Assembly: GCF_001577755.1 (NCBI RefSeq)
Contig: NZ_CP010776.1
Coordinates: 1,054,001 to 1,118,000 of the forward strand
DNA length: 64,000 bases
Source of the DNA: Rufibacter sp. DG15C
Lineage (GTDB): Bacteria; Bacteroidota; Bacteroidia; Cytophagales; Hymenobacteraceae
Direction of reading: 5' to 3'
Positions within the stretch are counted from its first letter, which is position 1; every line of letters starts with the position of its first letter. This document shows, piece by piece, positions 339 through 56,010 of the stretch. A program made the position numbers and the translations under genes. The notes beneath the pieces are model-generated. The model worked only from the letters and a program-made list of their open reading frames with translations. It had not been told where the DNA came from and ran no database searches.

Positions 339-375
339 CAGAAAGCCCCGCTACTTGGCGGGGCTTTCTGTTTTT
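339..375 (+). terminator. Rho-independent terminator of the first gene
   Basis: The hairpin CAGAAAGCCCCGC / GCGGGGCTTTCTG has a 6-nt loop and is followed by TTTTT. The T-tract is at the same time the start of the dispersed hairpin element at 369-406. Confidence 0.85.
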
Positions 376-406
376 AGGCTGTTTTAGCCAAAACAGGCCA
401 AAAACG
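369..406 (+). repeat. Dispersed 38-bp hairpin element, copy 1
   Basis: The right arm AAAACAGGCCAAAAACG matches the consensus perfectly and the left arm is diverged (GTTTTTAGGCTGTTTT). It lies in a convergent gap and overlaps the T-tract of the terminator before it. Confidence 0.85.
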
Positions 407-422
407 CTTGTATTTAAATTCA

Positions 423-457
423 AGAGAAGTCTTGCGTCTTATGTCTTGAATCCTGTG
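423..457. repeat. Degenerate short tandem (GTCTTG-type) tract
   Basis: The segment contains GTCTTGCGTCTTATGTCTTG followed by further CTTG/GTCTT units, a degenerate repeat of about 7-8 bp just downstream of the fadE stop. Such tracts occur in Bacteroidota intergenic DNA; no function is visible. Confidence 0.4.
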
Positions 458-459
458 TC

Positions 460-2247
460 TTAGTACACGTACTCGTTGGCTTTGATCATTTCCGCGGCAA
501 TGCGTCTGCGGGCTTCTTTGGTGTTGTATGGATCCAACTTGGTGAAGCGCTTCAAGCCAATCAGCAACAGCTTCTGTTCATCACCCGGTTCGGTCATGGC
601 GGCCAAGGCTTCTTTCCCGGCCTTGTTGATGCGGTCTGCGGCGTCATTGATCACCACGCGGGCCATGTCCAGCTGACGCGAAGTCGCTTCTTCGCCGTTC
701 AGGCTTACCAGTTTCTCTACGCGTAGCAAAGTAGACTCGGCTATGTAAGTTTGAATGGCCATATCGGCTATGTACATCAAGACTTCCTGCTCTTTGTCCA
801 GGGTCATCATGAACTTCTGCACAGCGGTACCAGCGGTTAAAAGAACAGCCTTTTTGAATTTCTCCACGGCTTTCTTCTCTGCGGCAAACAGCGTAGTGTC
901 CTCTTCCCCGAAGTCTGGAATCTCCATCAACTCTTGCTGTACGGCAGCGGCGGGTCCCATCAAATCCAGTTCGCCTTTCATGGCCTTTTTCAAGACCATG
1001 TCCACAATGAGCATGCGGTTGATTTCATTGGTACCTTCAAAGATGCGGTTGATGCGGGCATCACGGTACGCGCGGTCCATTGGATAATCTGCAGAGAAGC
1101 CGTAACCACCGTAAATCTGCACGCCTTCGTCCACCACGTAATCCAGCACCTCAGAACCGTCCACTTTCAAGATGGCGGCTTCTACGGCAAACTCGCGGGC
1201 AGCTTCTAACACGGCCTCGTTGTAGTTTTTACCAGCAGCCAGCAGCTCTTGCTCTTTGTTGTAGATGTCGTTTCCGCAACGGTATATGGCAGACTCTACG
1301 GCAAAGATTCTAATGGCCTGCTCTGCTAGTTTATGACGGATGGCGCCAAACTTAGAAATCGGAATCTTGAACTGGATGCGCTCGTTGGCATACTTCACAG
1401 ACAGTTCGGCTACGCTCTTACATGCGCCCAAACAGGCCGCCGCCAGTTTAATACGCCCAATGTTCAAGATGTTGAAAGCGATTAAGTGGCCTTTGCCAAT
1501 TTCGCCTAGCACGTTCTCTTTCGGTACTTTGCAGTCCGTTAGGAAGACCTGACGGGTAGATGAGCCCTTGATGCCCATCTTGTGCTCTTCGTTGCCCAGG
1601 CTCAGGCCTTCATAGCCTTTCTCCACAATAAAGCCCGTGAACTTGTCGCCATCTACTTGCGCGAACACAATGAATACATCTGCAAAACCGGCGTTAGTAA
1701 TCCACATTTTCTGACCGTTCAGGATGAAGTTATCACCTTCCACGTCCAGAATGGCTTTGGTTTTGGCGGCCAAGGCATCTGATCCAGAACCAGGCTCCGT
1801 CAAACAGTAAGAGGCCGTCCATTCCCCTGACGTCAGTTTGGGGATGTATTTGGCCTTCTGCTCTTCGGTCCCGAAATACAGGATAGGCAGCGTCCCAATA
1901 CCCGTGTGCGCCGCAAAAGCTACCGGGAACGAGTGCCCCGCTCCTACGGATTCTGTCACCAACAGCGACGAGTTGAAGTCCATGTCCAGCCCACCGTACT
2001 GTTCCGGGATAGCCACCCCGAACAAGCCCAGCTCGCCAGCCTTCTTCATGAGGCCTTCTAGCAGCCCTTCCTCGTGGTTGTCCATGCGCTCTACTAAAGG
2101 CATTACTTCACTCTGCACAAACTGCTGAGCGGTCTCGGCCATCATGCGTTGCTCCTCAGAGAATTCCTCTGGGATGAAAATATCCTGGGCGCTGGTCTGC
2201 TTGATGATGAACTCACCGCCTTTTAGGGTTTTATTAGTAGTTTCCAT
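460..2247 (-). CDS. fadE: Acyl-CoA dehydrogenase (FadE type)
   Basis: This 595-residue flavoprotein would catalyse the first step of beta-oxidation, oxidising acyl-CoA to trans-2-enoyl-CoA with FAD. Landmarks are the N-terminal helical domain (EEQRMMAETAQQFVQ), the substrate/FAD motif YCLTEPGSGSDALAAKTKA near residue 145, and the C-terminal GYGFSADYPMDRAYRDARI followed by IFEGTNEINR near residue 400. The extension after about residue 430 matches the ~595-aa length of the Bacillus FadE class rather than the 380-aa short class. It is the distal gene of a fadN-fadA-fadE set. The GIY-YIG cassette at 2341-2729 separates it from fadA, so it may need its own promoter. Confidence 0.93.
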   Translation of the reverse strand: METTNKTLKGGEFIIKQTSAQDIFIPEEFSEEQRMMAETAQQFVQSEVMPLVERMDNHEEGLLEGLMKKAGELGLFGVAIPEQYGGLDMDFNSSLLVTESVGAGHSFPVAFAAHTGIGTLPILYFGTEEQKAKYIPKLTSGEWTASYCLTEPGSGSDALAAKTKAILDVEGDNFILNGQKMWITNAGFADVFIVFAQVDGDKFTGFIVEKGYEGLSLGNEEHKMGIKGSSTRQVFLTDCKVPKENVLGEIGKGHLIAFNILNIGRIKLAAACLGACKSVAELSVKYANERIQFKIPISKFGAIRHKLAEQAIRIFAVESAIYRCGNDIYNKEQELLAAGKNYNEAVLEAAREFAVEAAILKVDGSEVLDYVVDEGVQIYGGYGFSADYPMDRAYRDARINRIFEGTNEINRMLIVDMVLKKAMKGELDLMGPAAAVQQELMEIPDFGEEDTTLFAAEKKAVEKFKKAVLLTAGTAVQKFMMTLDKEQEVLMYIADMAIQTYIAESTLLRVEKLVSLNGEEATSRQLDMARVVINDAADRINKAGKEALAAMTEPGDEQKLLLIGLKRFTKLDPYNTKEARRRIAAEMIKANEYVY

Positions 2248-2340
2248 ATTATTAGGTGCTAGATTCTAGTAATTAGATTGTAGACTTTTTCTGTTGAATG
2301 ACTTGCCAAGCGGCCGTCAAGCTATTTCTTTCTTCACCCT

Positions 2341-2373
2341 TTCTTTGTCATCCTGAAAGGATCTCGGTGGCAA
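2341..2373 (+). repeat. Left arm of 33-bp inverted repeat flanking the GIY-YIG gene
   Basis: This is the perfect reverse complement (33/33) of 2697-2729. The arm carries its own small palindrome, ATCCTGAAAGGAT, giving a REP-like hairpin. It begins 8 bp beyond the stop of the GIY-YIG gene. Confidence 0.95.
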
Positions 2374-2381
2374 ACTGTAAC

Positions 2382-2684
2382 TCAGTCAGCTATTTTCAGA
2401 AAAAGCATCTTTGGGTTCATTGTTTTGATCAAAGCTACTTTTTCCTCCCTGCTCAAGAGCTTCAATTCCTTTTCTGTCTCTATGGCGTGTTGCACATAAG
2501 TGAACCGTTCATAGTACAACAGCTTATAGCAGTAGTATTTCCCGGCAAACGTCTCTGGCTTTCCTCTATTTTCTCGGTGCTCAAATAACCTTCGGCTCAA
2601 ATCATTGGTCATACCCACGTAAAAAATGGTTTTTGTTGGGTTTGACGTGATGTAGACAAAGTAATTACGCTGTTTCATAGCCAT
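2382..2684 (-). CDS. GIY-YIG nuclease family protein (UPF0213/YhbQ-like)
   Basis: This small protein of 100 residues is essentially only the GIY-YIG domain. It shows NYFVYITSNPTKTIFYVGMT (the GIY and YIG strands appear as YFVYI and FYVGM), then R-R-L-x-E-H (RRLFEHRENRGK), and a C-terminal E in ETEKELK. These correspond to the Tyr/Tyr, Arg and Glu catalytic positions of the family. Single-domain members are structure- or sequence-specific DNA nucleases of mostly unknown role. The start at 2684 (MAMKQRN) is used; 2678 is possible. The gene is boxed in by 33-bp inverted repeats, suggesting that it acts on them or moves with them. Confidence 0.85.
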   Translation of the reverse strand: MAMKQRNYFVYITSNPTKTIFYVGMTNDLSRRLFEHRENRGKPETFAGKYYCYKLLYYERFTYVQHAIETEKELKLLSREEKVALIKTMNPKMLFLKIAD

Positions 2685-2696
2685 TGCCTGACTAGC

Positions 2697-2729
2697 TTGC
2701 CACCGAGATCCTTTCAGGATGACAAAGAA
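2697..2729 (-). repeat. Right arm of 33-bp inverted repeat flanking the GIY-YIG gene
   Basis: Perfect inverted copy of 2341-2373, ending 12 bp before the start codon of the GIY-YIG gene. The shared core is ATCCTTTCAGGAT. Confidence 0.95.
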
Positions 2730-2794
2730 GGGAGGCAGAACTTAGTTGAAACTGTCAGCCATCTTTTTTCTTGCTACCTGATACCTGCTGCGCG

Positions 2795-3973
2795 CTAGCG
2801 CAACAACTCATAAATCCCTGCCACGCCTTGGCCACCGCCTACGCAGGCAGTCACCATTCCGTATTTCTTGTTCTGACGACGAAGCTCATTGAAGAGCTGG
2901 ACACTCAACTTGGCACCGGAGCAGCCCAGCGGGTGACCTAGGGCGATGGCGCCGCCGTTCGGGTTGACTTTCTCTGGGTCAATACCTAATTCTCTTATGA
3001 CGGCAATGGACTGGGACGCAAAAGCCTCGTTCAGTTCAAAAAGGTCCACGTCCTGCAAGGTCATGCCGGCGTTTTTCAAGGCCTTCGGAATGGCTTTCAC
3101 CGGGCCCATGCCCATGATGCGCGGGTCCACGCCTTCGGCGGCATACGACACCAGGCGCGCGATAGGCTCCAGGTTCAGTTCTTTGACCATGCGCTCGCTC
3201 ATCACAATGGTGAAGGCGGCACCGTCTGAGGTCTGCGATGAGTTACCTGCGGTCACAGAACCATTGGTGGCAAATACCGGGCGCAGCTTGGCTAGTTTCT
3301 CTACAGACGTGTCGGCGCGAGGGCCTTCATCTGTGTCTGCCACGTAGGAGCGCGTTTTCTTCTTGCCGTTCTCATCCAGGTAGGTCTCCTCTATGTTGAT
3401 GGGCACAATCTGGTCCTTGAACCGGCCTTCCTCAATGGCCCTGATGGCTTTCTGGTGCGAGGCGTAGGCAAAAGCGTCCTGGTCTTCACGGCTGACGTTG
3501 AAGTCATTGGCCACAGCCTCGGCGGTTAAGCCCATGCTCAGGTAATACTCTGGGTGCTCCTTGGCAATCTTGTAGTTAGGAACGGTTTTCCAGCCTACTA
3601 CCGGCACCATGCTCATAGACTCGGCGCCGCCGGCAATGATACAGTCAGCCATGCCGGCTTGAATCTTGAAGGCCGCCGTGGCGATGGTCTCAATACCAGA
3701 ACCGCAGTAGCGGTTCATGATGGCACCGGGCACGTTGATGGGCAGAGACAAGAGGGAAATCATGCGTCCCATCTGCAGGCCTTGCTCGGCCTCGGGCACC
3801 GCGTTCCCAACCAAAAGGTCATCCACGCGGGCGGGGTCCAATTGCGGCACCGATGCCAGCAAATGCTTGATTACATCGGCGGCCAAATCATCTGGCCGGG
3901 TGAAACGGAATACGCCGCGGGGCGCTTTCCCCACTGCACTTCTGAATCCGGCAACTATATAGGCAGTTTGCAT
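2795..3973 (-). CDS. fadA: Acetyl-CoA C-acyltransferase (3-ketoacyl-CoA thiolase)
   Basis: This 392-residue thiolase would cleave 3-ketoacyl-CoA with CoA in the last step of beta-oxidation. The nucleophilic cysteine is in NRYCGSGIETIATAA (about residue 90). The catalytic His is in NGGAIALGHPLGCSGAKL and the second Cys in VTACVGGGQGVAGIYE near the C-terminus. Full family length with intact active-site residues. It lies about 140 bp downstream of fadN, separated only by a dispersed hairpin element, so the two are probably co-transcribed or coupled. Confidence 0.95.
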   Translation of the reverse strand: MQTAYIVAGFRSAVGKAPRGVFRFTRPDDLAADVIKHLLASVPQLDPARVDDLLVGNAVPEAEQGLQMGRMISLLSLPINVPGAIMNRYCGSGIETIATAAFKIQAGMADCIIAGGAESMSMVPVVGWKTVPNYKIAKEHPEYYLSMGLTAEAVANDFNVSREDQDAFAYASHQKAIRAIEEGRFKDQIVPINIEETYLDENGKKKTRSYVADTDEGPRADTSVEKLAKLRPVFATNGSVTAGNSSQTSDGAAFTIVMSERMVKELNLEPIARLVSYAAEGVDPRIMGMGPVKAIPKALKNAGMTLQDVDLFELNEAFASQSIAVIRELGIDPEKVNPNGGAIALGHPLGCSGAKLSVQLFNELRRQNKKYGMVTACVGGGQGVAGIYELLR

Positions 3974-4037
3974 TTTCTTTTCTGTTTGTTGGTAATGTGT
4001 TCATTCTTAATGCGCTGGGGGTTTACTTTCCCCTTAC

Positions 4038-4075
4038 CGTTTTTGGCTTCTTTTCATGAAAACAGGCCAAAAACG
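4038..4075 (+). repeat. Dispersed hairpin element, copy 2
   Basis: Perfect right arm AAAACAGGCCAAAAACG; left arm CGTTTTTGGCTTCTTTT. It lies between fadN and fadA, both on the minus strand, so it would sit inside the presumed fad transcript. Confidence 0.9.
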
Positions 4076-4112
4076 ACTAGCACCTTAATTATTCAACACG
4101 TTTCATTCATCA

Positions 4113-6515
4113 TTAATTGCGCAATGGCTTACCCGTAGTCAAGATGCTCTTGATACGCTCCAAGGTCTTGCGCTCGCCGCAGAGGCTCAGGAAAGCTTCG
4201 CGCTCCAGGTCTAGCAGGTATTGTTCAGAGACTTCAGACGGCATAGACAAGTCACCACCGCACATCACGTAGGCTAGTTTCTCAGAAATTTTGCGGTCAT
4301 GGTCAGAGATAAAACCGGCGACCTGCATGGCGTACGCCCCGGTCGTGAACATACCCAATCCACCACGACCCTGCACCTTGATGTTGGTCTTAGGCGTTGG
4401 CTTAGTATACCCGGCCTCTGCCAGGGCAATAGCGGCGGCTTTGGCTTCGGCTAATTGCCGGTTGATGTTGAGCGTGATGCCATCCCCGCGGCGCAGGAAT
4501 TTCAAATCAAAGGCTTCTGCCGCTGAGGTAGAAACTTTGGCTGTACCAATGGTCATGAAGGCGTTGCGAAGCGCGTTGTACTCAGTATCGCCTTCTTCAT
4601 ACTCAGCGGAGGTGCGCAAGGTCAATTCCTTGGTTCCGCCCCCGCCTGGGATTAAGCCCACGCCAAATTCTACCAAGCCAATATAGGACTCAGCGGCGGC
4701 CTGCACGTGGTCGGCGTGCAAGCAAAGCTCACAGCCTCCGCCTAGGGTCAAGCCGTGCGGTGCGGCCACCACTGGTATAGCCGAGTAGCGCAAACGCATC
4801 ATGGCATTCTGGAACTGACGAATCATCAAGTTCAGCTCATCATACTCCTGGTCCAGAGCGTACATGAACACCAGACCTAAGTTAGCACCTGCTGAGAAGT
4901 TAGCGGCCTCATTGCCTACCACTAGTCCTCTGAAGTCCTGCTCGGCTAAATCCACGCCTTTCATCAGGCCTTGGATTACCTCAGAGCCCAAGGCATTCAT
5001 CTTGGTATGGAATTCTACGTTCAGGATGCCGTCGCCTAAGTCAATGATTGACGCTCCGGCGTTTTTCCAAACCACGTTGGTGCCGCGCAAAACATCCAAC
5101 AGCACGAAGCTCTCGGTGCCCGGAATTACTTTATAGGTCTTAGAAGGAATGTCATAGTACTGCCGCTGGTTGTTCTGGCTGCGGTAGAAGCTCTCATGAC
5201 CGCCTTCCAGCATCTCATACACCCAGTCGGCGGGTTTGTAACCGGCGGCTTCCATGGCGCTCACGGTCTCACGCACGCCAAAGATGTCCCAAGTCTCAAA
5301 CGGACCCAGTTCCCATCCGAAACCGGCGCGCATGGCATCGTCAATGCGGTAGAGTTCGTCAGAAATCTCAGGGATGCGGTTGGTCACGTACTGGAACAAG
5401 CCATACGACGTCTCCCGGAAGAAATCGCCGGCTTTGTCCTGCACCTGGCTGAAGGCCTTGAGACGCTTGCGCAAATCTTCAATGGGCTTGAGAATCTCCA
5501 TGCTCTGGAATTTGACCTTCTTTTTAGGGCCGTATTCCATGGTGTTGAGGTCCAGCGTCAGAATCTCGGTGGCGCCTTGCTCGTTTTTGGTTTTCTTGTA
5601 GAAGCCTTGCTTGGTCTTGTCGCCTAGCCAGTTCTTCTCCAGCATCTGCTGAATGTAGGCAGGTAGTTGAAACAGGTCGCGCTTCTCATCGGTCTCGCCG
5701 GTTTGGTACAAGCCCTGCGCTACTTTGGCTAGCGTGTCCAAACCCACTAGGTCAGAGGTTCTAAACGTAGCCGACTTTGGACGGCCTACCACCGGGCCGG
5801 TGAGGCGGTCCACCTCGTCTACGTTCAAGCCCAGTTTCTCCATCACGTGCAACACCTGCATGATGCCGTAGATACCCACGCGGTTGGCAATAAAGGCCGG
5901 CGTGTCTTTAGCCAGTACGGTAGTTTTACCCAGGAACAGGTCGCCGTACTTTAACAGGAAGGCCGTGATTTCCGGGTCGGTTTGGTCGGTTGGGATAATC
6001 TCCAACAACTTGAGGTAGCGCGGCGGGTTGAAGAAGTGCGTACCGCAGAAGTGCTTCTGGAAATCTTCTGAGCGGCCTTCCAGCATTAAGTGGATGGGAA
6101 TACCCGAGGTATTGGAGGTGATGAGCGTGCCCGGCTTTCTGAACTGCTCTACCTTCTCAAAGATGGACTGCTTGATTTTGAGGTTCTCCACCACCACTTC
6201 AATGGTCCAGTCACATGATGCGATGTCTTTGAGGTCATCATCAAAGTTCCCGGTCTGAATCAAGCGCACGTCCTCTTTCTTGTAAAGGGGAGACGGGTTG
6301 GAGGTGACCGCCGTTTGCAGGGCCGTGTTGACAATTCTGTTGCGAACGGGCTTGTTGTCCAGGGTCAGACCTTTGGCCTGTTCCTCGGGTAGCAGTTCGC
6401 GGGGCACCATGTCCAGAAGCAGGACCTGCACCCCAATGTTGGCGAAGTGGCAGGCAATGCGGGAACCCATGATTCCGGAGCCCAGGACCGCCACTTTCTT
6501 TATAATTCTTTTCAT
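4113..6515 (-). CDS. fadN: 3-hydroxyacyl-CoA dehydrogenase/enoyl-CoA hydratase, FadN type
   Basis: This 800-residue bifunctional beta-oxidation enzyme has the FadN domain order (dehydrogenase first, hydratase last), the reverse of E. coli FadB. The N-terminus carries the NAD-binding motif VAVLGSGIMGSRIACHFANI. The dehydrogenase C-terminal helices follow (GTHFFNPPRYLKLLEIIPT, KDTPAFIANRVG). The crotonase domain lies near residues 495-700, with NFSAGANLGLVFM and HGLTLGGGCELCLHADHVQA as the oxyanion-hole segments. It would hydrate enoyl-CoA and oxidise the hydroxyacyl-CoA, feeding the thiolase encoded next to it. The neighbours fadA and fadE reproduce the Bacillus fadNAE order. Confidence 0.93.
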   Translation of the reverse strand: MKRIIKKVAVLGSGIMGSRIACHFANIGVQVLLLDMVPRELLPEEQAKGLTLDNKPVRNRIVNTALQTAVTSNPSPLYKKEDVRLIQTGNFDDDLKDIASCDWTIEVVVENLKIKQSIFEKVEQFRKPGTLITSNTSGIPIHLMLEGRSEDFQKHFCGTHFFNPPRYLKLLEIIPTDQTDPEITAFLLKYGDLFLGKTTVLAKDTPAFIANRVGIYGIMQVLHVMEKLGLNVDEVDRLTGPVVGRPKSATFRTSDLVGLDTLAKVAQGLYQTGETDEKRDLFQLPAYIQQMLEKNWLGDKTKQGFYKKTKNEQGATEILTLDLNTMEYGPKKKVKFQSMEILKPIEDLRKRLKAFSQVQDKAGDFFRETSYGLFQYVTNRIPEISDELYRIDDAMRAGFGWELGPFETWDIFGVRETVSAMEAAGYKPADWVYEMLEGGHESFYRSQNNQRQYYDIPSKTYKVIPGTESFVLLDVLRGTNVVWKNAGASIIDLGDGILNVEFHTKMNALGSEVIQGLMKGVDLAEQDFRGLVVGNEAANFSAGANLGLVFMYALDQEYDELNLMIRQFQNAMMRLRYSAIPVVAAPHGLTLGGGCELCLHADHVQAAAESYIGLVEFGVGLIPGGGGTKELTLRTSAEYEEGDTEYNALRNAFMTIGTAKVSTSAAEAFDLKFLRRGDGITLNINRQLAEAKAAAIALAEAGYTKPTPKTNIKVQGRGGLGMFTTGAYAMQVAGFISDHDRKISEKLAYVMCGGDLSMPSEVSEQYLLDLEREAFLSLCGERKTLERIKSILTTGKPLRN

Positions 6516-6557
6516 GTTTTATGATTGAGCTTACTACTTATTTACAAAACGATTCTA

Positions 6558-6599
6558 TCCGTTTTCGGCCTCATTTCTGGAAAACAGGCCAAAAACGGA
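6558..6599 (+). repeat. Dispersed hairpin element, copy 3
   Basis: Left arm CGTTTTCGGCCTCATTT; perfect right arm AAAACAGGCCAAAAACG. The stem is extended outward by two complementary pairs (TC/GA). It lies between marR and fadN. Confidence 0.9.
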
Positions 6600-6617
6600 A
6601 GGTGTATCTATAGGTGA

Positions 6618-7061: not shown

Positions 7062-7073
7062 TCAGTAACATAC

Positions 7074-7134: not shown

Positions 7135-7175
7135 GGCTGGTTTTCTCCTCTTTTACGGAAACCAGGCCAAAAACG
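7135..7175 (+). repeat. Dispersed hairpin element, copy 4 (diverged)
   Basis: The right arm AAACCAGGCCAAAAACG pairs with GGCTGGTTT on the left. Both arms changed together from the usual CTGTTTT/AAAACAG to TGGTTT/AAACCA, a compensatory change. The outer CGTTTTT is missing on the left. Confidence 0.65.
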
Positions 7176-10293: not shown

Positions 10294-10335
10294 TTCGTTT
10301 TTGGTCTACTTTCTGTAAAACAGGTCAAAAACGAA
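10294..10335 (+). repeat. Dispersed hairpin element, copy 5
   Basis: Arms CGTTTTTGGTCTACTTT and AAAACAGGTCAAAAACG. The GGTCT/AGGTC section still pairs through G-U wobbles, which points to selection on an RNA hairpin. Tandem genes flank it on the plus strand. Confidence 0.88.
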
Positions 10336-12308: not shown

Positions 12309-12348
12309 CCGTTTTTGGCCTGTTTCTCAGAAAACAAGCCAAAAACGG
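12309..12348. repeat. Dispersed hairpin element, copy 6
   Basis: Arms CGTTTTTGGCCTGTTT and AAAACAAGCCAAAAACG, starting 5 bp after the murQ stop. Orientation is uncertain because both arms are close to consensus. One extra C-G pair lies outside. Confidence 0.88.
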
Positions 12349-16346: not shown

Positions 16347-16388
16347 GCCGTTTTTGGCCCCTTTCCTGGAAAACAGGTCAAAAACGGC
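16347..16388 (+). repeat. Dispersed hairpin element, copy 8
   Basis: Arms CGTTTTTGGCCCCTTTCC and AAAACAGGTCAAAAACG, with an extra GC/GC pair outside. It lies between the NHL gene and era. Confidence 0.88.
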
Positions 16389-20530: not shown

Positions 20531-20574
20531 CTTCGTTTTTGGGTTAATTTCTGGAAAACAGGCCAAAAACGAAG
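20531..20574 (+). repeat. Dispersed hairpin element, copy 9
   Basis: Perfect right arm AAAACAGGCCAAAAACG; left arm CGTTTTTGGGTTAATTT. The stem is extended outward by CTT/AAG, unlike other copies but complementary. It lies in a convergent gap. Confidence 0.9.
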
Positions 20575-21202: not shown

Positions 21203-21549
21203 ACGTTAGATATGGTCACAAAAATAGGAAAGGTTCTTTACCTGAGTCCAAGAACCACATTGTCTTTTTGTAAACTTTCACCAGTGACACCTTCACAAAG
21301 CATGCTTCGGCCACACATCTTTCCAGAAAAGAAATTGCTTATCTAACTGCCTCTAAAACAGATGCCACCTTTCCCGATTTCGGCTTAGTTTCTGGGAAAC
21401 AGGCTAAAAACGACCAATTCTCCCTGCCCCCGATTCAAAGGCTGCCCGTGCACAGTATTTACACCTACGCGTTTATTCCGTATGTAAAAAGGAGCCCCTT
21501 TCCTCTGTAGCAGACTTGTAGAATTATTTTGTGCCCTTGCTTGACGTAG
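21203..21549. other. 347-bp divergent intergenic region
   Basis: The region separates the LOG gene (minus) from the antiporter gene (plus). It holds one dispersed hairpin element (21375-21412) and otherwise no convincing gene or RNA. A TATTTTG-like sequence about 25 bp before 21550 may be part of the antiporter promoter. Confidence 0.5.
21375..21412 (+). repeat. Dispersed hairpin element, copy 10
   Basis: Arms CGATTTCGGCTTAGTTT and GAAACAGGCTAAAAACG around CTGG. It lies in a divergent gap, so it cannot be a simple 3' terminator there. Confidence 0.85.
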
Positions 21550-23820: not shown

Positions 23821-23858
23821 CGTTTTTGGCCCGTTTTACAGAAAATAGCCTAAAAACG
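23821..23858 (-). repeat. Dispersed hairpin element, copy 11 (reverse orientation)
   Basis: Read on the minus strand it gives TTTTCTGTAAAACGGGCCAAAAACG-like order, i.e. the conserved arm is on the left of the plus strand (CGTTTTTGGCCCGTTTT). The other arm is AAAATAGCCTAAAAACG. It is one of only two clearly inverted copies. Confidence 0.85.
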
Positions 23859-23896
23859 AAAAGCGGAAGTTGTTTGCACAACTTCCGCTTTTCTAT
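23856..23896 (-). terminator. Terminator of proS
   Basis: The near-perfect hairpin GAAAAGCGGAAGTTGT / ACAACTTCCGCTTTTC, on the minus strand, runs straight into CGTTTTT of the dispersed element, which forms the T-tract. Confidence 0.85.
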
Positions 23897-28243: not shown

Positions 28244-28281
28244 CGTTTTTGGCCTGTTTCTTGGAAAACAGGCCAAAAACG
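28244..28281 (+). repeat. Dispersed hairpin element, copy 12 (near-perfect)
   Basis: Arms CGTTTTTGGCCTGTTT and AAAACAGGCCAAAAACG; begins 5 bp after a stop codon in a convergent gap. Confidence 0.92.
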
Positions 28282-31525: not shown

Positions 31526-31573
31526 GCTTCCGTTTTTGGGCTATTTCCTGAAAAGTAGCACAAAAACGGAAGC
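31526..31573. repeat. Dispersed hairpin element, copy 14 with long outer stem
   Basis: The core CGTTTTTGGGCTATTTCC / AAAAGTAGCACAAAAACG is extended outward by GCTTC/GAAGC, five extra complementary pairs. It lies between sucA and odhB, where no other terminator is present. Confidence 0.8.
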
Positions 31574-36252: not shown

Positions 36253-36290
36253 CGTTTTTGGCTTCTTTTTCTGAAAACAGCCGAAAAACA
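36253..36290 (+). repeat. Dispersed hairpin element, copy 15
   Basis: Arms CGTTTTTGGCTTCTTTTT and GAAAACAGCCGAAAAACA. It lies in the divergent gap between the DWDRH-domain gene and the small gene at 36377. Confidence 0.8.
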
Positions 36291-37048: not shown

Positions 37049-37095
37049 CAAAAAGAAAGGCCCCGCAGAGTGACTGCGGGGCCTTTCTTTTTTTA
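37049..37095 (+). terminator. Terminator of the small membrane protein gene
   Basis: The perfect stem AAAAGAAAGGCCCCGCAG / CTGCGGGGCCTTTCTTTT is followed by more Ts, which form the left arm of dispersed element copy 16. Confidence 0.9.
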
Positions 37096-37125
37096 GCCTA
37101 CTTTCTAGAAAACAGGCCAAAAATG
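37088..37125 (+). repeat. Dispersed hairpin element, copy 16
   Basis: The right arm is AAAACAGGCCAAAAATG; the left arm TTTTTTAGCCTACTTT merges with the terminator T-tract. Confidence 0.82.
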
Positions 37126-38465: not shown

Positions 38466-38503
38466 CGTTTTCAGCCTATTTCCCATAAAATAGCCCAAAA
38501 ACG
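38466..38503. repeat. Dispersed hairpin element, copy 17
   Basis: Arms CGTTTTCAGCCTATTT and AAAATAGCCCAAAAACG; orientation ambiguous. It lies in the divergent gap just before the signal-peptide start at 38538, supporting that later start. Confidence 0.8.
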
Positions 38504-42129: not shown

Positions 42130-42173
42130 AAAAACGAAAGGGGCTGACCAGATGGTCAGCCCCTTTCGTTTTT
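42130..42173. terminator. Perfect bidirectional terminator after the fusion gene
   Basis: The arms AAAAACGAAAGGGGCTGACC and GGTCAGCCCCTTTCGTTTTT are perfectly complementary with a 4-nt loop. The last CGTTTTT is shared with dispersed element copy 18, so the two hairpins compete for it. Confidence 0.9.
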
Positions 42174-42204
42174 GGGTTATTTCCTGGAAAACAGGCTAAA
42201 AACG
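42167..42204 (+). repeat. Dispersed hairpin element, copy 18
   Basis: Arms CGTTTTTGGGTTATTTCC and AAAACAGGCTAAAAACG; ends 1 bp before the stop of the convergent gene at 42206. Confidence 0.9.
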
Positions 42205-44120: not shown

Positions 44121-44160
44121 AAAAGAAGAAGGCGAGCCAATTGGCTCGCCTTCTTCTTTT
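44121..44160. terminator. Perfect 40-nt palindromic terminator
   Basis: AAAAGAAGAAGGCGAGCCAA is exactly complementary to the following 20 bases. Then comes CGTTTTT from dispersed element copy 19. It serves the MBL gene and possibly the convergent PRC-barrel gene. Confidence 0.9.
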
Positions 44161-44197
44161 CGTTTTTGGGCTGTTTTCCCAGAATCAGGTGAAAACT
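44161..44197 (-). repeat. Dispersed hairpin element, copy 19 (reverse orientation)
   Basis: The conserved arm is on the left (CGTTTTTGGGCTGTTTTCC); the right arm AGAATCAGGTGAAAAC is degraded. It overlaps the stop codon of the PRC-barrel gene. One of two clearly inverted copies. Confidence 0.75.
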
Positions 44198-44933
44198 AGT
44201 ATAAGCCCAGCGCTTTTCTCTTTAGGGCCGTGAACTCGTCATGGTTGATGGTGCCCTCGTCTAGCATGCGCTTAAGACGTTCAATGGTGGCAATGTCCCC
44301 GTCAATGGCGCTGTTTCCACCCATGCCGGTTGTGCCTGAGCCCATGCCAGAGGACGTAGAGCCCACATTTGGGTTTATGTTACGGTTCATGTCTGCATTC
44401 ACAGCCGAGCTTCTCTGGTCTATGTAATCATCTTGACGACGCGTCTGGTAGAAACGGCTGTCATCAAAAGACTCATGCTCATAGAACTGGTCATCTGGTG
44501 GCGTGGTATGCGAAGACGTGGTCATGAACGACGTAGTAGGACTGGTCACGGCGTGCAGCACGCGGTACTCATAGTCTGGGGTCACCTCGCCGCCGCGGTA
44601 GAATGGGTAGCGGGACAAACCGGCTAGCTCCAAACCAGTCACGCGCACCTCATCAGCTGACTCATCTAAATGGGCCGCACCAATGGGCACCAGAATGTGG
44701 CGGTCATCGGTGTCTGGCAAGAGCAGGTTGGGATCTACGTCTACGTCCAAGTAGCGAACCTTCATGAGCGTTTGGTCCACGATGAGGTCATCCACTTTGC
44801 CAATGCGGCGGCCGTCAGCGCCTACCACTTCCCAGCCGCGCACGTCAAGGTTGTTGTCAGATACTTTAAAATTGCTCAGTTTATGCAAAGGGCGCAGTCG
44901 CACTCCCTTTGAATAGTCATTATTGTTTGCCAT
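44196..44933 (-). CDS. PRC-barrel protein with C-terminal SHOCT domain
   Basis: This 245-residue protein has an N-terminal PRC-barrel (WEVVGADGRRIGKVDDLIVD, YLDVDVDPNLLLPDTDDRH), a Ser/Thr/Gln-rich middle, a Met/Gly-rich linker and a C-terminal SHOCT-like helix pair (IERLKRMLDEGTINHDEFTA). No signal peptide. PRC-barrel proteins of this lineage are often linked to stress responses (YsnF-like); the role here is inferred. It lies 28 bp from the small membrane protein gene upstream on the same strand, so the two probably form an operon. Confidence 0.82.
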   Translation of the reverse strand: MANNNDYSKGVRLRPLHKLSNFKVSDNNLDVRGWEVVGADGRRIGKVDDLIVDQTLMKVRYLDVDVDPNLLLPDTDDRHILVPIGAAHLDESADEVRVTGLELAGLSRYPFYRGGEVTPDYEYRVLHAVTSPTTSFMTTSSHTTPPDDQFYEHESFDDSRFYQTRRQDDYIDQRSSAVNADMNRNINPNVGSTSSGMGSGTTGMGGNSAIDGDIATIERLKRMLDEGTINHDEFTALKRKALGLY

Positions 44934-45278: not shown

Positions 45279-45332
45279 GCGCGCTCCGTTTTTGGCCTGC
45301 TTTCTGGAAAACAGGCCAAAAACGGAGCGCGC
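45279..45332 (+). repeat. Dispersed hairpin element, copy 20, with the longest stem
   Basis: The perfect arms CGTTTTTGGCCTG...CAGGCCAAAAACG are extended by eight further complementary pairs (GCGCGCTC / GAGCGCGC), giving about 25 paired bases. It lies in the gap between two minus-strand genes. Confidence 0.95.
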
Positions 45333-47246: not shown

Positions 47247-47288
47247 ACGCCGGTCTTGCCATCTTTTACAGGCGGGGCCGGCGTTTTT
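47247..47288 (+). terminator. Terminator after the SIMPL gene
   Basis: AACGCCGG pairs with CCGGCGTT and runs into TTT, the left arm of dispersed element copy 21. The long loop makes it modest. Confidence 0.55.
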
Positions 47289-47318
47289 GGCTTATTTTCT
47301 GGAAAATACCTCAAAAAC
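47282..47318 (+). repeat. Dispersed hairpin element, copy 21 (right arm degraded)
   Basis: Left arm CGTTTTTGGCTTATTTT with CTGG loop; right arm AAAATACCTCAAAAACC. Confidence 0.75.
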
Positions 47319-47366
47319 CACAACGTTGTCTTTGCCTTGCACGTCAAGCAAATGCCAAATCTTTGG

Positions 47367-49231: not shown

Positions 49232-49268
49232 GGTTTTTGGCTTACTTTCTGGAAAACAGGCCAAAACC
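49232..49268 (+). repeat. Dispersed hairpin element, copy 22
   Basis: Arms GGTTTTTGGCTTACTTT and AAAACAGGCCAAAACC with CTGG loop. The outer base pair changed from C-G to G-C on both sides. Confidence 0.85.
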
Positions 49269-49365
49269 GGAGTTGAGAAAGGTTCTGATTTTCAATGTGT
49301 AGCACTTTCTTAATCTTTCTGAGAGGCTTCACGTATACCCATTCCAAAACCAATAAACAGAGACT

Positions 49366-49605: not shown

Positions 49606-49625
49606 TCCCCTTAGGGAAAAACGTT

Positions 49626-49670
49626 AACAGAAAGCCCCGAAGAAATGTCTTCGGGGCTTTCTGTTTTTAA
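49626..49670 (+). terminator. Terminator of the lipoprotein gene
   Basis: The stem AACAGAAAGCCCCGAAGA / TCTTCGGGGCTTTCTGTT is followed by TTT. Confidence 0.88.
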
Positions 49671-49857
49671 CTGGGTAGCCACCCAACAATTGGTCAAGGC
49701 CTTTCCCTAGCTGCCTCATCTCTATTCTTTTCCAAAAACGATCAATTCTTAAAATGACATGGGCGATAATTCCTCTGCCGTATTTTGTGTCTAGCTTATT
49801 CTTACGTTTCCCTATAGGCAATCACCAGCTGAATAAACATTTGCAACCAGAGCTTTG

Positions 49858-49894
49858 CTATTGGCCTGTTTTCTGGAAACTAGGCTAAAAACAG
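49858..49894 (+). repeat. Dispersed hairpin element, copy 23
   Basis: Arms TTGGCCTGTTTT and GAAACTAGGCTAAAAACAG with CTGG loop. The outer CGTTTTT is partly lost. Confidence 0.75.
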
Positions 49895-50081
49895 AAACGT
49901 GTGCTTTACGCCAAAACAAGGTTGGTACATAAAACATAGGAAAAACAGTATTTTTATATCACCCAATTTTCTTGCTAGAAAATCTTGTTTAAAGCCTAAG
50001 TATTAGTCACTTACAACTCAACTTAAAAAATTATTAAATTATATTATTTGAAAGAATAGTGCCATATAAAGACTTTCGTTC

Positions 50082-50089
50082 TACCTTTG
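50082..50089 (+). promoter_or_regulatory. Candidate -7 box (TACCTTTG)
   Basis: TACCTTTG fits TAnnTTTG upstream of the gene at 50132 and would give a leader of about 35 nt. Confidence 0.4.
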
Positions 50090-50131
50090 TGCGTCCCCTG
50101 CTATTAGATTAATCCTTAGCGTAGACATTAC

Positions 50132-50578: not shown

Positions 50579-50590
50579 CTTTTCTTCCCT

Positions 50591-51820: not shown

Positions 51821-51849
51821 ATGCTGCAAATGGAATTCTACTCCAGGTT

Positions 51850-51894
51850 TAAGGTGCAAATCAAAAAAGAACGTCGCAAACAGGCCAAAGACGG
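51850..51894 (+). repeat. Dispersed hairpin element, copy 24 (remnant)
   Basis: The right arm remains as AAACAGGCCAAAGACG; the left arm is barely recognisable. It lies in the divergent gap before gcvP. Confidence 0.45.
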
Positions 51895-51948
51895 CGCGCT
51901 GTCTCTGCAATTTAGGAGGTCTGGGTGTAATTACTGAATTTTAAGCTT

Positions 51949-51956
51949 TACTTTTG
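51949..51956 (+). promoter_or_regulatory. Candidate -7 box (TACTTTTG) of gcvP
   Basis: TACTTTTG fits TAnnTTTG and lies 70 bp before the gcvP start. The leader of about 64 nt is too short for a glycine riboswitch. Confidence 0.4.
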
Positions 51957-52026
51957 TGTAATGATTTGAGCCTGACGGCTGTTTTTCAGATAACAAGATT
52001 CCATTTCTACTCTTAATATACCTCAC

Positions 52027-54945
52027 ATGATATTTAAGACCAAACCAGCAGACATCTTCAAAGAACGCCACAACGGCCCTGTGAAAGACCAAATTCAGGA
52101 GATGTTGCAAGTAATTGGTGCAGATTCTTTGGATCAGCTCATTGATGAGACCGTACCCGCGGCCATCAGACTAAAACAACCCTTAAACCTGCCATCTGCC
52201 TTAACGGAGCGCGACTTCTTGCGCAAGTTCTCTCAGATTGCCAAGCAGAACAAACTGTACAAGTCATACATTGGCTTGGGCTATAATGACACCATCTTGC
52301 CTCCGGTCATCCAGCGCAACATCCTGGAGAACCCAGGTTGGTACACCGCTTATACGCCGTATCAAGCCGAGATTGCCCAGGGCCGCTTGGAGGCGTTGAT
52401 TAATTACCAAACCCTGGTGATTGAGTTGACCGGCGTAGAGATTGCCAACGCGTCTTTGCTGGATGAGGCTACGGCTGCTGCTGAGGCCATGAACATGCTC
52501 TATGCGTTACGCAAAGGCTCCAGAAAGAATGCCACCCGCTTCTTTGTCTCTGACCAGGTATTGCCGCAGACCTTAGATGTGTTGATTACGCGCGCCACGC
52601 CATTAAACATTGAACTGATTGTAGGCGACCACCTGGACGTGAACCTGGAAGATGACACCATCTTCGGGGCCTTGGTACAATACCCGGCCGCCAATGGAGA
52701 GGTATTTGACTACACAGACTTCATCTCTCAGGCACACGCCCAGGATATGTTAGTGGCCGTAGCCGCTGACTTGATGAGCTTGACCTTGTTGAAAGCCCCC
52801 GGTGAAATGGGTGCCGATGTAGTCGTAGGTTCTTCGCAACGTTTTGGTGTACCTATGGGCTACGGCGGACCGCACGCTGGTTTCTTTGCCACTAAAGAAG
52901 AGTACAAGCGTTCCATCCCGGGCCGTATAATTGGGGTTTCTGTGGACGCGCACGGCAACAAAGCTTACCGTATGGCCTTGCAGACGCGTGAGCAGCACAT
53001 TAGAAGAGAGAAAGCCACGTCTAACATCTGTACCGCGCAGGTATTATTGGCCGTGATGGCCGGTATGTACGCCGTGTACCATGGACCGCGTCGCTTAAAA
53101 TACATTGGCCTCAACATCCACAGCCTGACCCAAATCTTGGAGAAAGGCTTGGAGCGTCTGGGCTTTGAGCAGATCAACGACAACTACTTTGACACCCTAC
53201 AGATTAGAGTGGAGAGCGCTGAGTTGCAAAATGCCATCAAGCAAGAATCAGAGGCATCTGAGATCAACTTCCGCTACTTCGCAGATTCTCATAACATAGG
53301 CATCTCTCTTAATCAGAATACAGACTTAGAGGATGTGAAAGCGATTTTGGCTGTTTTCTCAAAAGTAGCCGGAAAACCAGCCGCTGAGCTGGAGATGACC
53401 GAATTGCCTGAGCAAGTAGACATTCAGTGGCCAGAGTCATTGATCAGAACGTCTTCTTACCTGCAGCACGAGGTGTTCAACAAGTACCACTCAGAAAGCG
53501 AAATCCTGCGCTACATGAAGTACCTGGAGAACAAAGACTTCTCTTTGACGCACGGCATGATTCCGTTGGGTTCTTGCACCATGAAACTGAACGCCACCGC
53601 CGAGATGATTCCGGTGACCTGGCCAGAGATTGGCTCTTTGCACCCTTTTGCCCCAGTAGACCAAGCCAAAGGCTACGCCCAAATCTTTGAAGATCTGGAA
53701 GCGTGGCTATGCGAGGTGACTGGTTTTGCCGCTGTTTCTCTGCAGCCAAACTCAGGTGCCCAAGGCGAGTACGCCGGTCTGATGGTAATCAGAGCCTACC
53801 ATGAGGCGCGCGGTGATCATCACCGTAACATCTCGTTGATCCCATCTTCGGCACACGGCACCAACCCGGCCTCTGCGGTGATGGCCGGAATGAAAGTGGT
53901 GATTGTGAAGTGCGATGAGCGCGGTAACATTGACGTAGCTGATTTGAAAGCGAAAGCCGAGCAGCACAAAGACGATCTATCTTGCCTAATGGTGACCTAT
54001 CCTTCTACCCACGGCGTGTATGAGGAAAGCATCCTTGAAATTTGTGAGATTATCCATACGTACGGTGGCCGTGTGTATATGGACGGTGCCAACATGAACG
54101 CCCAGGTGGGCTTGACCTCGCCGGGTAACATTGGCGCGGATGTGTGCCACTTGAACCTGCACAAGACCTTCTGTATTCCGCACGGTGGTGGTGGACCAGG
54201 CGTTGGCCCAATTGGCGTAGTGGCTGACTTAGCTCCGTACCTGCCAGGCCACGCGGTGGTAGATTTGGGTAGACCAGAGGCTATCAATGCCGTTTCTGCC
54301 GCACCTTGGGGAAGCGCCAGCATCCTGCCAATTTCTTATGCCTATATTGCCATGATGGGCGGCGAAGGTTTGACAGAGGCCACCAAGATTGCCATCCTAA
54401 ATGCTAACTACATCAAAGCCCGTCTGGAGCCGCACTACCCAGTATTGTACGTAGGTACCAACGGCCGTTGCGCTCATGAAATGATCTTAGACTGCCGCGC
54501 CTTCAAAAAAGTGGGTGTTGAGGTAGAAGACATTGCCAAGCGTTTGATGGACTATGGCTTCCATGCGCCAACAGTATCTTTCCCAGTGGCCGGAACCTTG
54601 ATGGTAGAGCCTACTGAGAGCGAAAGCAAAGCAGAGCTAGACCGTTTCTGCGAAGCCATGATTTCTATCAGAGCAGAAATCACTGAGATTGAAGAAGGCA
54701 AAGCCGATCAGAAGGTGAACGTGTTGAAAAACGCTCCTCACCCGGCGCACATTGCCCTGGTAGAGAACTGGACCTTGCCGTACTCCAGAGAGAAAGCAGT
54801 GTATCCAGTGCCGTATACCAGAATTGCTAAGTTCTGGCCAACCGTGAGCCGCGTAGACAGTGCTTACGGTGACCGTAACTTGATTTGTAGCTGTGCCCCG
54901 GTAGAAGCCTATAATGAGCAAGACCAGCCTATGACCGCGGTGTAA
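52027..54945 (+). CDS. gcvP: Glycine dehydrogenase (decarboxylating), P-protein
   Basis: This 972-residue PLP enzyme of the glycine cleavage system decarboxylates glycine and transfers the aminomethyl group to the H-protein. The N-terminal half ([20 protein letters not shown]) and the PLP-carrying half are fused in one chain. The PLP lysine is in [20 protein letters not shown] near residue 715, and the conserved [17 protein letters not shown] lies near 515. Full length for the single-chain type. The gcvT and gcvH genes are not in this window. Confidence 0.96.
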
Positions 54946-54970
54946 TCACCATTTTAAGTATTCCTTACAG

Positions 54971-55012
54971 AAAACGCCCGTTGCCTCACCGCAGCGGGCG
55001 TTTTCGTTTTTA
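54971..55012 (+). terminator. Terminator of gcvP
   Basis: AAAACGCCCG pairs with CGGGCGTTTT, followed by CGTTTTT, which is the left arm of dispersed element copy 25. Confidence 0.85.
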
Positions 55013-55042
55013 GGCTAATTCTTGGAAAACAGCCAAAAAACG
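55005..55042 (+). repeat. Dispersed hairpin element, copy 25
   Basis: Arms CGTTTTTAGGCTAATTC and GGAAAACAGCCAAAAAACG. The left arm is shared with the gcvP terminator tail. Confidence 0.82.
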
Positions 55043-55282
55043 GCCACCTATCTGCTTTTCACAATAGTCATGCAGATAGTTTCTTCACTTGTATAAGACA
55101 CAGCAACGCCGCTAAGGAATAGACAAACGCTATGTGACAGGAATAGTCTGCACTTCACCTCCTAGCAAGTCTCTATAATCCAGAGGGCTACTATATTCCC
55201 AAAAACGTATAATATAAGTATTTGACTCCCTGTGCAATAGAGACTGAGACGTTGTTTATTCTACATACAAATCCAGAACAAG

Positions 55283-55912
55283 ATGAACTCACCAAACAGC
55301 ATCCTTACGTATTTGATGGGGTTAAGCATGAGCCTTTTGATCTTAGGCTTTGCAGGCTGTGCTCCTTCCATCCATGTCTCCTCAGATTATGAGAAGAACA
55401 CCAATTTTGCGCAATACCGTACCTGGCGCTGGTACCAAGACCAACCTGTGGCAAAAAGTGATTCTACCCGTAAATACAGTACGTTCTTAGACAAGCGGGT
55501 GAAGACTGCGGTAGAAAGTGAAATGGCCCGCCGAGGCTTTCAGCTAGCTGCCGGCTCACAAAAAACAGACATGCTTTTGGCCTATGATGTGAGTATTGAG
55601 AATGTGCAGCGCATTCGGCCAGACTATATAAGTATTCCTACCATAGGGTATGGGTACTGGTACGGTTACCGCTATGCCTACACCTACAACAGGCTATACA
55701 ATAATACCACCGTGCAAGAATACCAGGCGGGTACTATTATTTTGGATATTGTGGACGCCCAAAGCAATGAACTGGTATGGCGCGGCACCGGGCAAACCAC
55801 TGGCGGCGAGAGATCCTTGACCCAAGAAAAAGTCCAAGCCGTCATTACCCAGATTTTGGCCAAGTTCCCGCCTAAGACTAGTAATGACCAAGTGTCCTCT
55901 AGCCAGTATTAG
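55283..55912 (+). CDS. DUF4136 lipoprotein
   Basis: This 209-residue lipoprotein has signal MNSPNSILTYLMGLSMSLLI and lipobox GFAGC. The DUF4136 core is recognisable from NTNFAQYRTWRWYQDQPVA at the N-terminal strand, DKRVKTAVESEMARRGFQLA, and QAGTIILDIVDAQSNELVWR with a terminal helix VQAVITQILAKFPPK. DUF4136 proteins are small envelope lipoproteins of unknown role common in Bacteroidota. It has its own promoter region and terminator. Confidence 0.88.
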   Translation: MNSPNSILTYLMGLSMSLLILGFAGCAPSIHVSSDYEKNTNFAQYRTWRWYQDQPVAKSDSTRKYSTFLDKRVKTAVESEMARRGFQLAAGSQKTDMLLAYDVSIENVQRIRPDYISIPTIGYGYWYGYRYAYTYNRLYNNTTVQEYQAGTIILDIVDAQSNELVWRGTGQTTGGERSLTQEKVQAVITQILAKFPPKTSNDQVSSSQY

Positions 55913-55928
55913 AAACTTGGTTTCACTT

Positions 55929-55963
55929 AAAAAGCCCTAGCCCAACAAGCTAGGGCTTTTTTA
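55929..55963 (+). terminator. Terminator of the DUF4136 gene
   Basis: AAAAAGCCCTAGC pairs with GCTAGGGCTTTTT across a 7-nt loop. Confidence 0.9.
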
Positions 55964-55970
55964 ACAGCTT

Positions 55971-56010
55971 CCGTTTTTGGCCTATTTTCTGGAAAACAGG
56001 CCAAAAACGG
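55971..56010 (+). repeat. Dispersed hairpin element, copy 26 (near-perfect)
   Basis: Arms CCGTTTTTGGCCTATTTT and AAAACAGGCCAAAAACGG with CTGG loop, between two ordinary terminators in a convergent gap. Confidence 0.92.

What the first reader, a model, noticed from the sequence alone, without database searches (positions are those of the whole stretch)
369..56010. A ~38-bp hairpin element repeated about 26 times at gene boundaries
Seen: CGTTTTTGGCCTGTTTT - CTGG - AAAACAGGCCAAAAACG, with variants, at 369, 4038, 6558, 7135, 10294, 12309, 15199, 16347, 20531, 21375, 23821, 28244, 29817, 31526, 36253, 37088, 38466, 42167, 44161, 45279, 47282, 49232, 49858, 51850, 55005 and 55971. All lie in gaps (one touches a stop codon), never more than one per gap. 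They occur in convergent (7), co-directional (15) and divergent (4) gaps, so simple transcription termination cannot explain them all. I know of no described Bacteroidota element with this sequence. Possible roles are an RNA 3'-end stabiliser/attenuator, a cruciform or nucleoid-protein site, an uptake-type signal kept as inverted pairs (as Neisseria DUS serve as terminators), or a REP/MITE-like parasite.
Basis: partly seen in the sequence, partly recalled or inferred. Interest (0 to 1): 0.92.

Follow-up and report, generated by a model that had tools for sequence, protein, structure and literature searches.

The report
Genus-wide palindrome in gene gaps
Bacteria of the genus Rufibacter carry, usually singly, a 38-letter mirror-image DNA word in many of the gaps between genes, kept in place across species but spelled in species-specific dialects, which suggests an unknown factor that reads it across the chromosome.

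Summary
In detail: 25 of the 26 listed copies are real (51850 is coding sequence). A scan of 863 kb (21% of the genome) finds 338 copies, none in randomised DNA, so about 1,600 per genome; 22 of 338 overlap a called gene by 30 nt or more. Occupied gaps usually hold one copy. In the searches made the element occurs only in one genus (Rufibacter). In the nearest species it is present at 24 of 24 orthologous gaps; key positions are conserved beyond the flanks. The consensus differs by species in a concerted way ("dialects"), at some loci by change in place. Arms do not occur alone, so the whole dyad is the unit. In the window's genome 67 of 332 copies have extended, covarying stems, often with T-tails, apparently intrinsic terminators; the other 265 show no overall pairing constraint. 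RAYT-REP, uptake-signal and MITE readings fail defining tests. Copies avoid start codons and, beyond that, prefer gene 3' ends moderately, yet also occur in divergent gaps. Best reading (inference): a sequence-specific dimeric DNA-binding protein uses it as a boundary site at gene ends. No protein was identified; a termination role remains the main rival.

The parts
369..406 (.). element copy, convergent gap, abuts a terminator hairpin
4038..4075 (.). element copy, co-directional gap
6560..6597 (.). element copy, co-directional gap
7138..7175 (.). element copy, co-directional gap (weaker, 35 bits)
10296..10333 (.). element copy, co-directional gap
12310..12347 (.). element copy, co-directional gap, 5 nt after a stop codon
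15200..15237 (.). element copy, co-directional gap; flanks conserved in the genus members compared
16349..16386 (.). element copy, co-directional gap
20534..20571 (.). element copy, convergent gap, stem extended by 4 bp
21375..21412 (.). element copy, divergent gap
23821..23858 (.). element copy, convergent gap, abuts a terminator hairpin on its right
28244..28281 (.). element copy, convergent gap, 4 nt after a stop codon
29817..29855 (.). element copy with one inserted base, co-directional gap
31531..31568 (.). element copy, co-directional gap, stem extended by 5 bp
36253..36290 (.). element copy, divergent gap; right flank conserved in G048 and G012 while the core differs in dialect
37088..37125 (.). 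element copy, co-directional gap, abuts a terminator hairpin
38466..38503 (.). element copy, divergent gap; at least 12 bits in 7 of 9 other genus members compared
42167..42204 (.). element copy, convergent gap, abuts a terminator hairpin; in-place dialect change seen in relatives
44161..44198 (.). element copy, convergent gap, abuts a terminator hairpin
45287..45324 (.). element copy, co-directional gap, stem extended by 8 bp; in the nearest species a different complementary extension stands there
47282..47319 (.). element copy, co-directional gap
49232..49269 (.). element copy, co-directional gap
49856..49893 (.). element copy, co-directional gap
55005..55042 (.). element copy, co-directional gap, follows a terminator-like hairpin (by eye)
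55972..56009. element copy, convergent gap; highest score (62.8 bits) of the 150 candidates that one search scored
335..374 (+). terminator-like hairpin whose right arm runs into the element at 369
   Evidence: I9
37050..37092 (+). terminator-like hairpin overlapping the left end of the element at 37088
   Evidence: I6
42130..42173 (+). terminator-like hairpin overlapping the left end of the element at 42167
   Evidence: I2
44121..44160 (+). terminator-like hairpin directly left of the element at 44161
   Evidence: I5
23858..23893 (-). terminator-like hairpin directly right of the element at 23821
   Evidence: I11

Best explanation
It is a chromosome-wide DNA site: a 38-bp dyad, about 1,600 copies by proportion, usually one per occupied gap, kept out of coding DNA and thinned out near start codons, with a moderate preference for gene 3' ends. 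It is most likely bound as a unit by a dimeric (or tetrameric) sequence-specific protein particular to this genus, acting as a boundary between neighbouring transcription units (insulating, or organising the nucleoid). Shown: copy number, under-dispersion per gap, genus restriction within the searches made, orthologous positions, conservation of the key positions, absence of lone arms, no overall pairing constraint in most copies of the genomes that were split by class, species dialects with some change in place. Inferred: that a protein reads it, that it reads DNA rather than RNA, and that the role is a boundary. A minority of copies are also built into hairpins, often terminators, where pairing is selected.
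For: Half-sites occur only in pairs: 517 in pairs and 0 solitary at 20 bits. Copies with flank extension under 3 bp show no positive covariation over the core (G000 265 copies z -1.8, G045 90 z -5.2, G048 68 z -1.7, G006 124 z 1.0). Positions most conserved among copies are also the most conserved between species: G000-G017 0.97 at key positions, 0.87 over the core, 0.70 in the flanks, in 16 alignable gaps. Dialects: G045 CGTTTAGGGGCTG..., G048 CGTTTTCGGGCTCATTTC..., at many loci and on both arms; at gaps 14, 26 and 31 flanks are conserved while the core differs. Orthologous presence: G017 24 of 24 gaps with, 0 of 21 without. Under-dispersion: convergent gaps of 80-400 bp hold 0, 1 or 2+ copies in 12, 55 and 4 cases against 33, 22 and 16 expected. 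Orientation does not follow gene direction. Occupancy at a start-free length of 80-159 nt is 23 of 26 convergent, 32 of 47 co-directional and 6 of 15 divergent gaps, so gene ends are preferred but divergent gaps are also used.
Against: No protein was found or sought systematically; there are no binding or expression data. Copies with extended stems (67 of 332) covary, so structure matters in some. Residual positive covariation stays at outer pairs 1, 6 and 7 in G000 and G048 copies without extension (z 3.0 and 2.0), and unsplit samples of G012, G032, G022, G051, G054 and G006 show a core excess (z 2.6-4.2). A score threshold can itself create negative correlation between arms. Beyond G017 the core as a whole (0.61-0.73) is no better conserved than gaps without the element (0.63-0.68); only the key positions (0.76-0.93) are. 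Change in place is shown at few loci. The 3'-end preference suits a termination role as well.
Confidence: 0.42

Rival explanations
1. Bidirectional transcription terminator or 3'-end element: the palindrome, read alike from both sides, ends or protects transcripts, as an RNA hairpin or as a protein roadblock.
For: Convergent gaps of 80 bp or more hold it in 69 of 83 cases. Copies at least 100 nt from a start in co-directional gaps lie nearer the stop than chance (median 35 against 48, sd 6), as do convergent ones (15 against 22, sd 3). Copies with stems extended by 3 bp or more covary (G000 z 9.4) and have T/A tails in 45 of 67 against 66 of 265. In co-directional gaps the T-tail of copies extended by 4 bp or more is on the downstream side in 18 of 35. 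Many terminator stems end at the element's edge.
Against: Intrinsic terminators outside the core are neither enriched nor depleted beside it (convergent 58 of 118 against 18 of 48; co-directional 29 of 145 against 31 of 128). In 53 of these 263 element-bearing ends the terminator precedes the element. 33 of 106 divergent gaps hold it. Most copies show no overall pairing constraint. 68 of 315 stop-to-element distances under 200 nt are 0-9 nt, where a bound roadblock would stop polymerase before the stop codon (recalled polymerase geometry).
Confidence: 0.28
2. Fossil or still mobile selfish repeat (REP- or MITE-like) without function, spread in the genus ancestor and tolerated only in free space.
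For: High copy number, sharp score distribution (325 of 338 at 28 bits or more), avoidance of coding DNA and of start codons. An island of 37.7% G+C holds 1 copy in 20 kb.
Against: Key positions stay at 0.76-0.97 identity while the 20 flanking bases are at 0.54-0.75. Positions are orthologous. No direct-repeat excess at 4-5 nt and none at 7-9 nt, a slight one at 2-3 nt. The window's genome has no Y1 transposase at E 0.001. RAYT-type genes elsewhere in the genus are flanked by other palindromes.
Confidence: 0.13
3. DNA uptake signal of natural transformation with species dialects, the 38-bp dyad being the unit.
For: Copy number, genus restriction and species dialects resemble the Neisseriaceae DUS (PMC3630211, passages seen).
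Against: No solitary arms; few copies in genes (22 of 338); few partial sites (13 of 338 between 14 and 28 bits); presence in a gap does not depend on the distance to the next copy (p 0.71).
Confidence: 0.09

Closest known systems
REP / BIME elements with RAYT transposases
   Same: Short palindromes, hundreds of copies, mostly intergenic
   Different: No GTAG or CGTC tag (22 of 338 against 8.9% of random places), no cognate RAYT found, rarely more than one per gap (20 of 287), conserved at orthologous gaps, species dialects
DNA uptake sequences of Neisseriaceae and Pasteurellaceae
   Same: Very high copy number, clade restriction, dialects that follow species (PMC3630211, passages seen)
   Different: The unit is a 38-bp dyad whose arms do not occur alone, and it is rarely in genes
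Intrinsic terminators
   Same: 67 of 332 copies have extended, covarying stems, 45 of these with a T or A tail
   Different: The core has its T-run before and its A-run after the G+C part, the reverse of a terminator; 265 of 332 copies show no overall pairing constraint
High-copy intergenic spaced motifs between convergent genes, e.g. GCTTAT(N)5AAGCG in A. ebreus (PMC5217627, passages seen)
   Same: Mostly intergenic, many between convergent genes (44 convergent, 4 divergent, 59 co-oriented), unexplained
   Different: 114 copies there against about 1,600 here; no dialect or orthology analysis in the passages I saw

Membership tests
REP/RAYT system | GTAG (or CGTC) tetranucleotide at one end | tested here: not met
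   22 of 338 copies against 8.9% of 2,000 random positions; the tag as definition from passages of PMC3733652
REP/RAYT system | Cognate RAYT gene flanked by the repeat | tested here: not met
   No Y1_Tnp in the own genome at E 0.001. 15 of 16 genus genomes have Y1_Tnp proteins. Of the 45 genus matches listed there, 20 loci were fetched; the element lies within 300 nt on both sides in 5 of 20 (L136, L137, L140, L143, L145) against 18% of 602 ordinary genes in G000. In the 11 of 20 whose flanks I printed, other short palindromes stand beside the gene (by eye). 38 of 46 sampled family genomes outside the genus have Y1_Tnp, while 134 such genomes lack the strict element pattern.
REP/RAYT system | Short high-copy palindrome, mostly intergenic | tested here: met
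MITE | Target-site duplication | tested here: not met
   Direct flanking repeats of 2-9 nt: 21, 8, 2, 1, 1, 0, 0, 0 observed against 12.4, 4.7, 1.9, 0.9, 0.2, 0, 0, 0: a slight excess at 2-3 nt only, and one 6-nt case
MITE | Empty sites in close relatives | tested here: not met
   G000 and G017 agree in 24 of 24 gaps with and 21 of 21 gaps without the element; alignments (length-mismatched gaps skipped)
DNA uptake signal (DUS/USS) | Single short word as the unit, also without a partner | tested here: not met
   0 solitary arms at 20 bits; 2 at 18 bits against 2 in randomised DNA; 7 at 14 bits against 11
DNA uptake signal (DUS/USS) | Promotes transformation | not testable with these tools
   needs an experiment
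Intrinsic terminator | G+C-rich hairpin followed by a T-tract | tested here: inconclusive
   Met by part of the copies: T or A tail in 45 of 67 with extended stems and 66 of 265 without in G000; in G045 7 of 32 and 13 of 90
Any Rfam family | Match at the gathering score | tested here: not met
   0 matches in 64,000 bases
Nucleoid-protein site | Bound by an identified protein | not tested
   no candidate protein was sought systematically

The most novel reading that the evidence does not exclude
Rufibacter has an unknown, genus-specific DNA-binding protein that co-evolves with its 38-bp dyad, read about once in most roomy gaps at gene ends of the chromosome; species dialects arose by site-by-site, arm-by-arm change in place. 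This would be a bacterial insulator or boundary system with about 1,600 sites.
Probability: 0.33. Interest if true: 0.92.

Novelty: new variant of a known kind. Interest (0 to 1): 0.78.

Why it matters
Chromosome-wide sites whose consensus changes dialect within a clade are known for uptake signals. A dyad that behaves so without single arms, about one per gap, points to an unknown trans-acting factor and offers a natural experiment on how a factor and over a thousand of its sites change together. It can be tested directly in culturable strains.

Tried and rejected
Replichore polarity. In the window 16 of 25 copies have one orientation, 5 the other, 4 unclear, and exact half-patterns split 29:7 and 14:24 by GC-skew half (counted by hand from the 74 places; p 0.00017). 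With the copies without extended stems the test is weak (62:44 against 43:46, p 0.19). The signal is mainly at pair 13/26 (p 0.0016, one of ten pairs tested) and the centre, so I treat it as minor.

RAYT absence as proof. My first test covered the own genome only; 15 of 16 genus genomes have Y1_Tnp proteins. I then looked at their flanks.

3'-end preference as pure avoidance. One search seemed to show that a closed zone of 80-100 nt before start codons explains it, but that count kept copies that lie inside the closed zone. Redone fairly, density at 100 nt or more from any start still differs (7.3, 4.9 and 2.1 per kb in convergent, co-directional and divergent gaps) and copies lie nearer stops than placement nulls with avoidance. 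So I withdrew that conclusion, lowered the main reading a little (0.45 to 0.42) and raised the termination rival (0.22 to 0.28).

Covariation. A count on 25 copies found none beyond shuffles, on 332 a weak excess; splitting by flank extension resolved four genomes into two classes.

Density-regulated spacing. Presence in a gap does not depend on the nearest other copy; the accompanying spacing null did not reproduce the observed mean (2,943 against 2,269) and is not used.

tRNA genes: 2 of 4 have a copy on the 3' side and 0 of 4 on the 5' side, too few to use. Other genera: five genomes, 40 kb each, mostly show palindromes of the usual A-left/T-right form; the G000 and G045 matrices hit nothing there, the weak G006 matrix 0-3 each. 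The G006 matrix is loose: 36 of its 140 hits overlap called genes, against 3 of 122 in G045 and 2 of 113 in G048.
Full report
Observation. The window lies at 1,054,001-1,118,000 of a single 4,143,738-base contig. Twenty-five of the 26 places hold a 38-bp imperfect palindrome; the one at 51850 does not. A matrix built from the window copies and refined on 863 kb finds 338 copies at 14 bits or more and none in randomised DNA, about 1,620 per genome by proportion. 22 of 338 overlap a called gene by at least 30 nt (my own gene caller). Rfam has no match at gathering scores.

Where it sits. Occupied gaps: convergent 75 of 105, co-directional 179 of 443, divergent 33 of 106; 20 of these 287 hold more than one copy. 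Occupancy is more even than chance: convergent gaps of 80-400 bp hold 0, 1 or 2+ copies in 12, 55 and 4 cases against 33, 22 and 16 expected; co-directional 91, 134 and 3 against 130, 67 and 31. Relatives agree: convergent gaps of 80-400 bp 25 of 29 (G045), 21 of 21 (G048), 15 of 17 (G006); divergent 6 of 23, 8 of 25, 8 of 20. Density falls near start codons, and at 100 nt or more from any start it is 7.3, 4.9 and 2.1 per kb in convergent, co-directional and divergent gaps. Copies lie nearer stop codons than placement nulls with start avoidance: co-directional median 31 against 48-55 (sd 5-6), for those at least 100 nt from a start 35 against 48 (sd 6), convergent 15 against 22 (sd 3). So part of the 3' bias is avoidance of starts and a moderate real preference for gene ends remains. 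Orientation does not follow gene direction, and presence in a gap does not depend on the nearest other copy.

Who has it. A strict palindromic pattern occurs in 16 of 16 genomes of the genus (1 to 879 copies) and in 0 of 134 genomes of five other genera of the family. A dialect-neutral pattern occurs in 7 of 7 genus genomes sampled and 0 of 383 others in the order. In the named collection 8 stretches hold a perfect copy and all are Rufibacter (R. immobilis, R. ruber, R. sediminis, R. sp. XAAS-G3-1; records near the window's own may be left out). IMG/VR has no match to one strict pattern.

Inheritance and selection. At orthologous gaps of the window, the nearest relative G017 (98% identical in two proteins) has the element in 24 of 24 where the window has it and in 0 of 21 where it has not. 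With the G000 matrix at 12 bits, farther species have it in: G048 14 of 19, G045 14 of 20, G054 12 of 17, G060 14 of 16, G051 14 of 21, G022 13 of 19, G012 12 of 17, G032 10 of 13, G057 6 of 14, G006 6 of 20; and, where the window lacks it, in 0-4 of 12-18 gaps each (dialects make the first figures low, and ortholog gaps up to 1,500 nt were allowed). Identity between G000 and G017 is 0.97 at the key positions, 0.87 over the core, 0.70 in the flanks and 0.79 in gaps without the element; in the others the key positions are at 0.76-0.93, weak core positions at 0.50-0.63 and flanks at 0.54-0.75.

Dialects. At gaps 14, 26 and 31 flanks are conserved while the core is in the local dialect; a clearly matching flank exists in 3 of 16 G000-G045, 2 of 14 G000-G048, 5 of 15 G045-G051 and 3 of 9 G048-G012 pairs, against 1-4% of random pairs. 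In G045, copies without extended stems often have one arm in the new dialect and a degenerate other arm (likelihood gain 297 against 106-124 for re-paired arms; G000 77 against 52-70; G048 82 against 43-58).

Hairpin or dyad. Arms do not occur alone. Over all copies the core covaries little in G000, G045 and G048; smaller unsplit samples of G012, G032, G022, G051 and G054, and G006, show an excess (z 2.6-4.2), G060, G057 and G017 do not. Split by flank extension, copies with at least 3 further complementary bases have fewer core mismatches (mean 2.0 against 4.3 in G000, 0.9 against 5.9 in G045, 2.2 against 3.9 in G048, 5.1 against 8.3 in G006) and covary (67 copies z 9.4; 32, z 10.0; 45, z 4.8; 16, z 6.4). 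T or A tails are enriched among them in G000 (45 of 67 against 66 of 265), G048 (18 of 45 against 13 of 68) and G006 (9 of 16 against 26 of 124) but not in G045 (7 of 32 against 13 of 90). The rest show none or negative covariation over the core, with some left at outer pairs 1, 6 and 7 in G000 and G048. At 45287 the 8-bp extension is matched in G017 by a different complementary pair. So a minority serves as hairpins, often terminators, and the majority is kept as sequence. The untailed extended class of G045 is not explained.

Known families. RAYT-REP: no tag; Y1_Tnp genes of the genus have other palindromes beside them where I looked (11 of 20 fetched loci). MITE: no convincing duplications, no empty sites in the near relative. 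Uptake signal: no single arms. Passages of PMC3733652, PMC3630211 and PMC5217627 were seen. In ten searches of an open-access library no listed title or abstract start describes this element; several searches listed only 5-20 of their hits, and the library lacks most subscription journals.

Conclusion. The site behaves like the target of a dimeric DNA-binding protein specific to the genus, about one per occupied gap and drawn to gene ends. That a protein exists, that it reads DNA, and that the role is a boundary are inferences; a termination role is the strongest rival, fossil-repeat and uptake readings keep small shares.

Noticed in passing
L134-L153 (20 loci of 10 genomes of the genus): Y1_Tnp (mostly RAYT-type, about 180 aa) genes in 15 of 16 genus genomes; in the 11 loci printed they have their own short palindromes beside them (e.g. 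GGAAGTTTATAAACTTCC, GAGTCTGAAGACTC, GGGGATTTATCAATCCCC), several distinct families by eye.
   Followed up: partly
L136 and L145 (G017, G012), upstream of a RAYT-type gene: A copy of the 38-bp element with an extended stem (about 10 bp in L136, by eye) and a run of T stands 38 nt before the transposase gene in both species, as if shielding it from read-through.
   Followed up: no
L025 (genome 103,001-123,000): Island of 37.7% G+C with a protein bearing an integrase-type arm-binding domain and Eco57I-type/N6 methylase genes; only 1 element copy in 20 kb.
   Followed up: partly
whole genome (sampled stretches): GC skew changes sign near 1.5 and 3.47 Mb (one stretch at 2.59 Mb deviates), while the dnaA match is at 464.7 kb.
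   Followed up: no
window 59076-63938: 1620-aa open frame on the minus strand with six repeats spaced 384-387 nt.
   Followed up: no
window 369-56009 and genome: Weak strand polarity of the element (centre CTGG against CCAG) by GC-skew half.
   Followed up: partly
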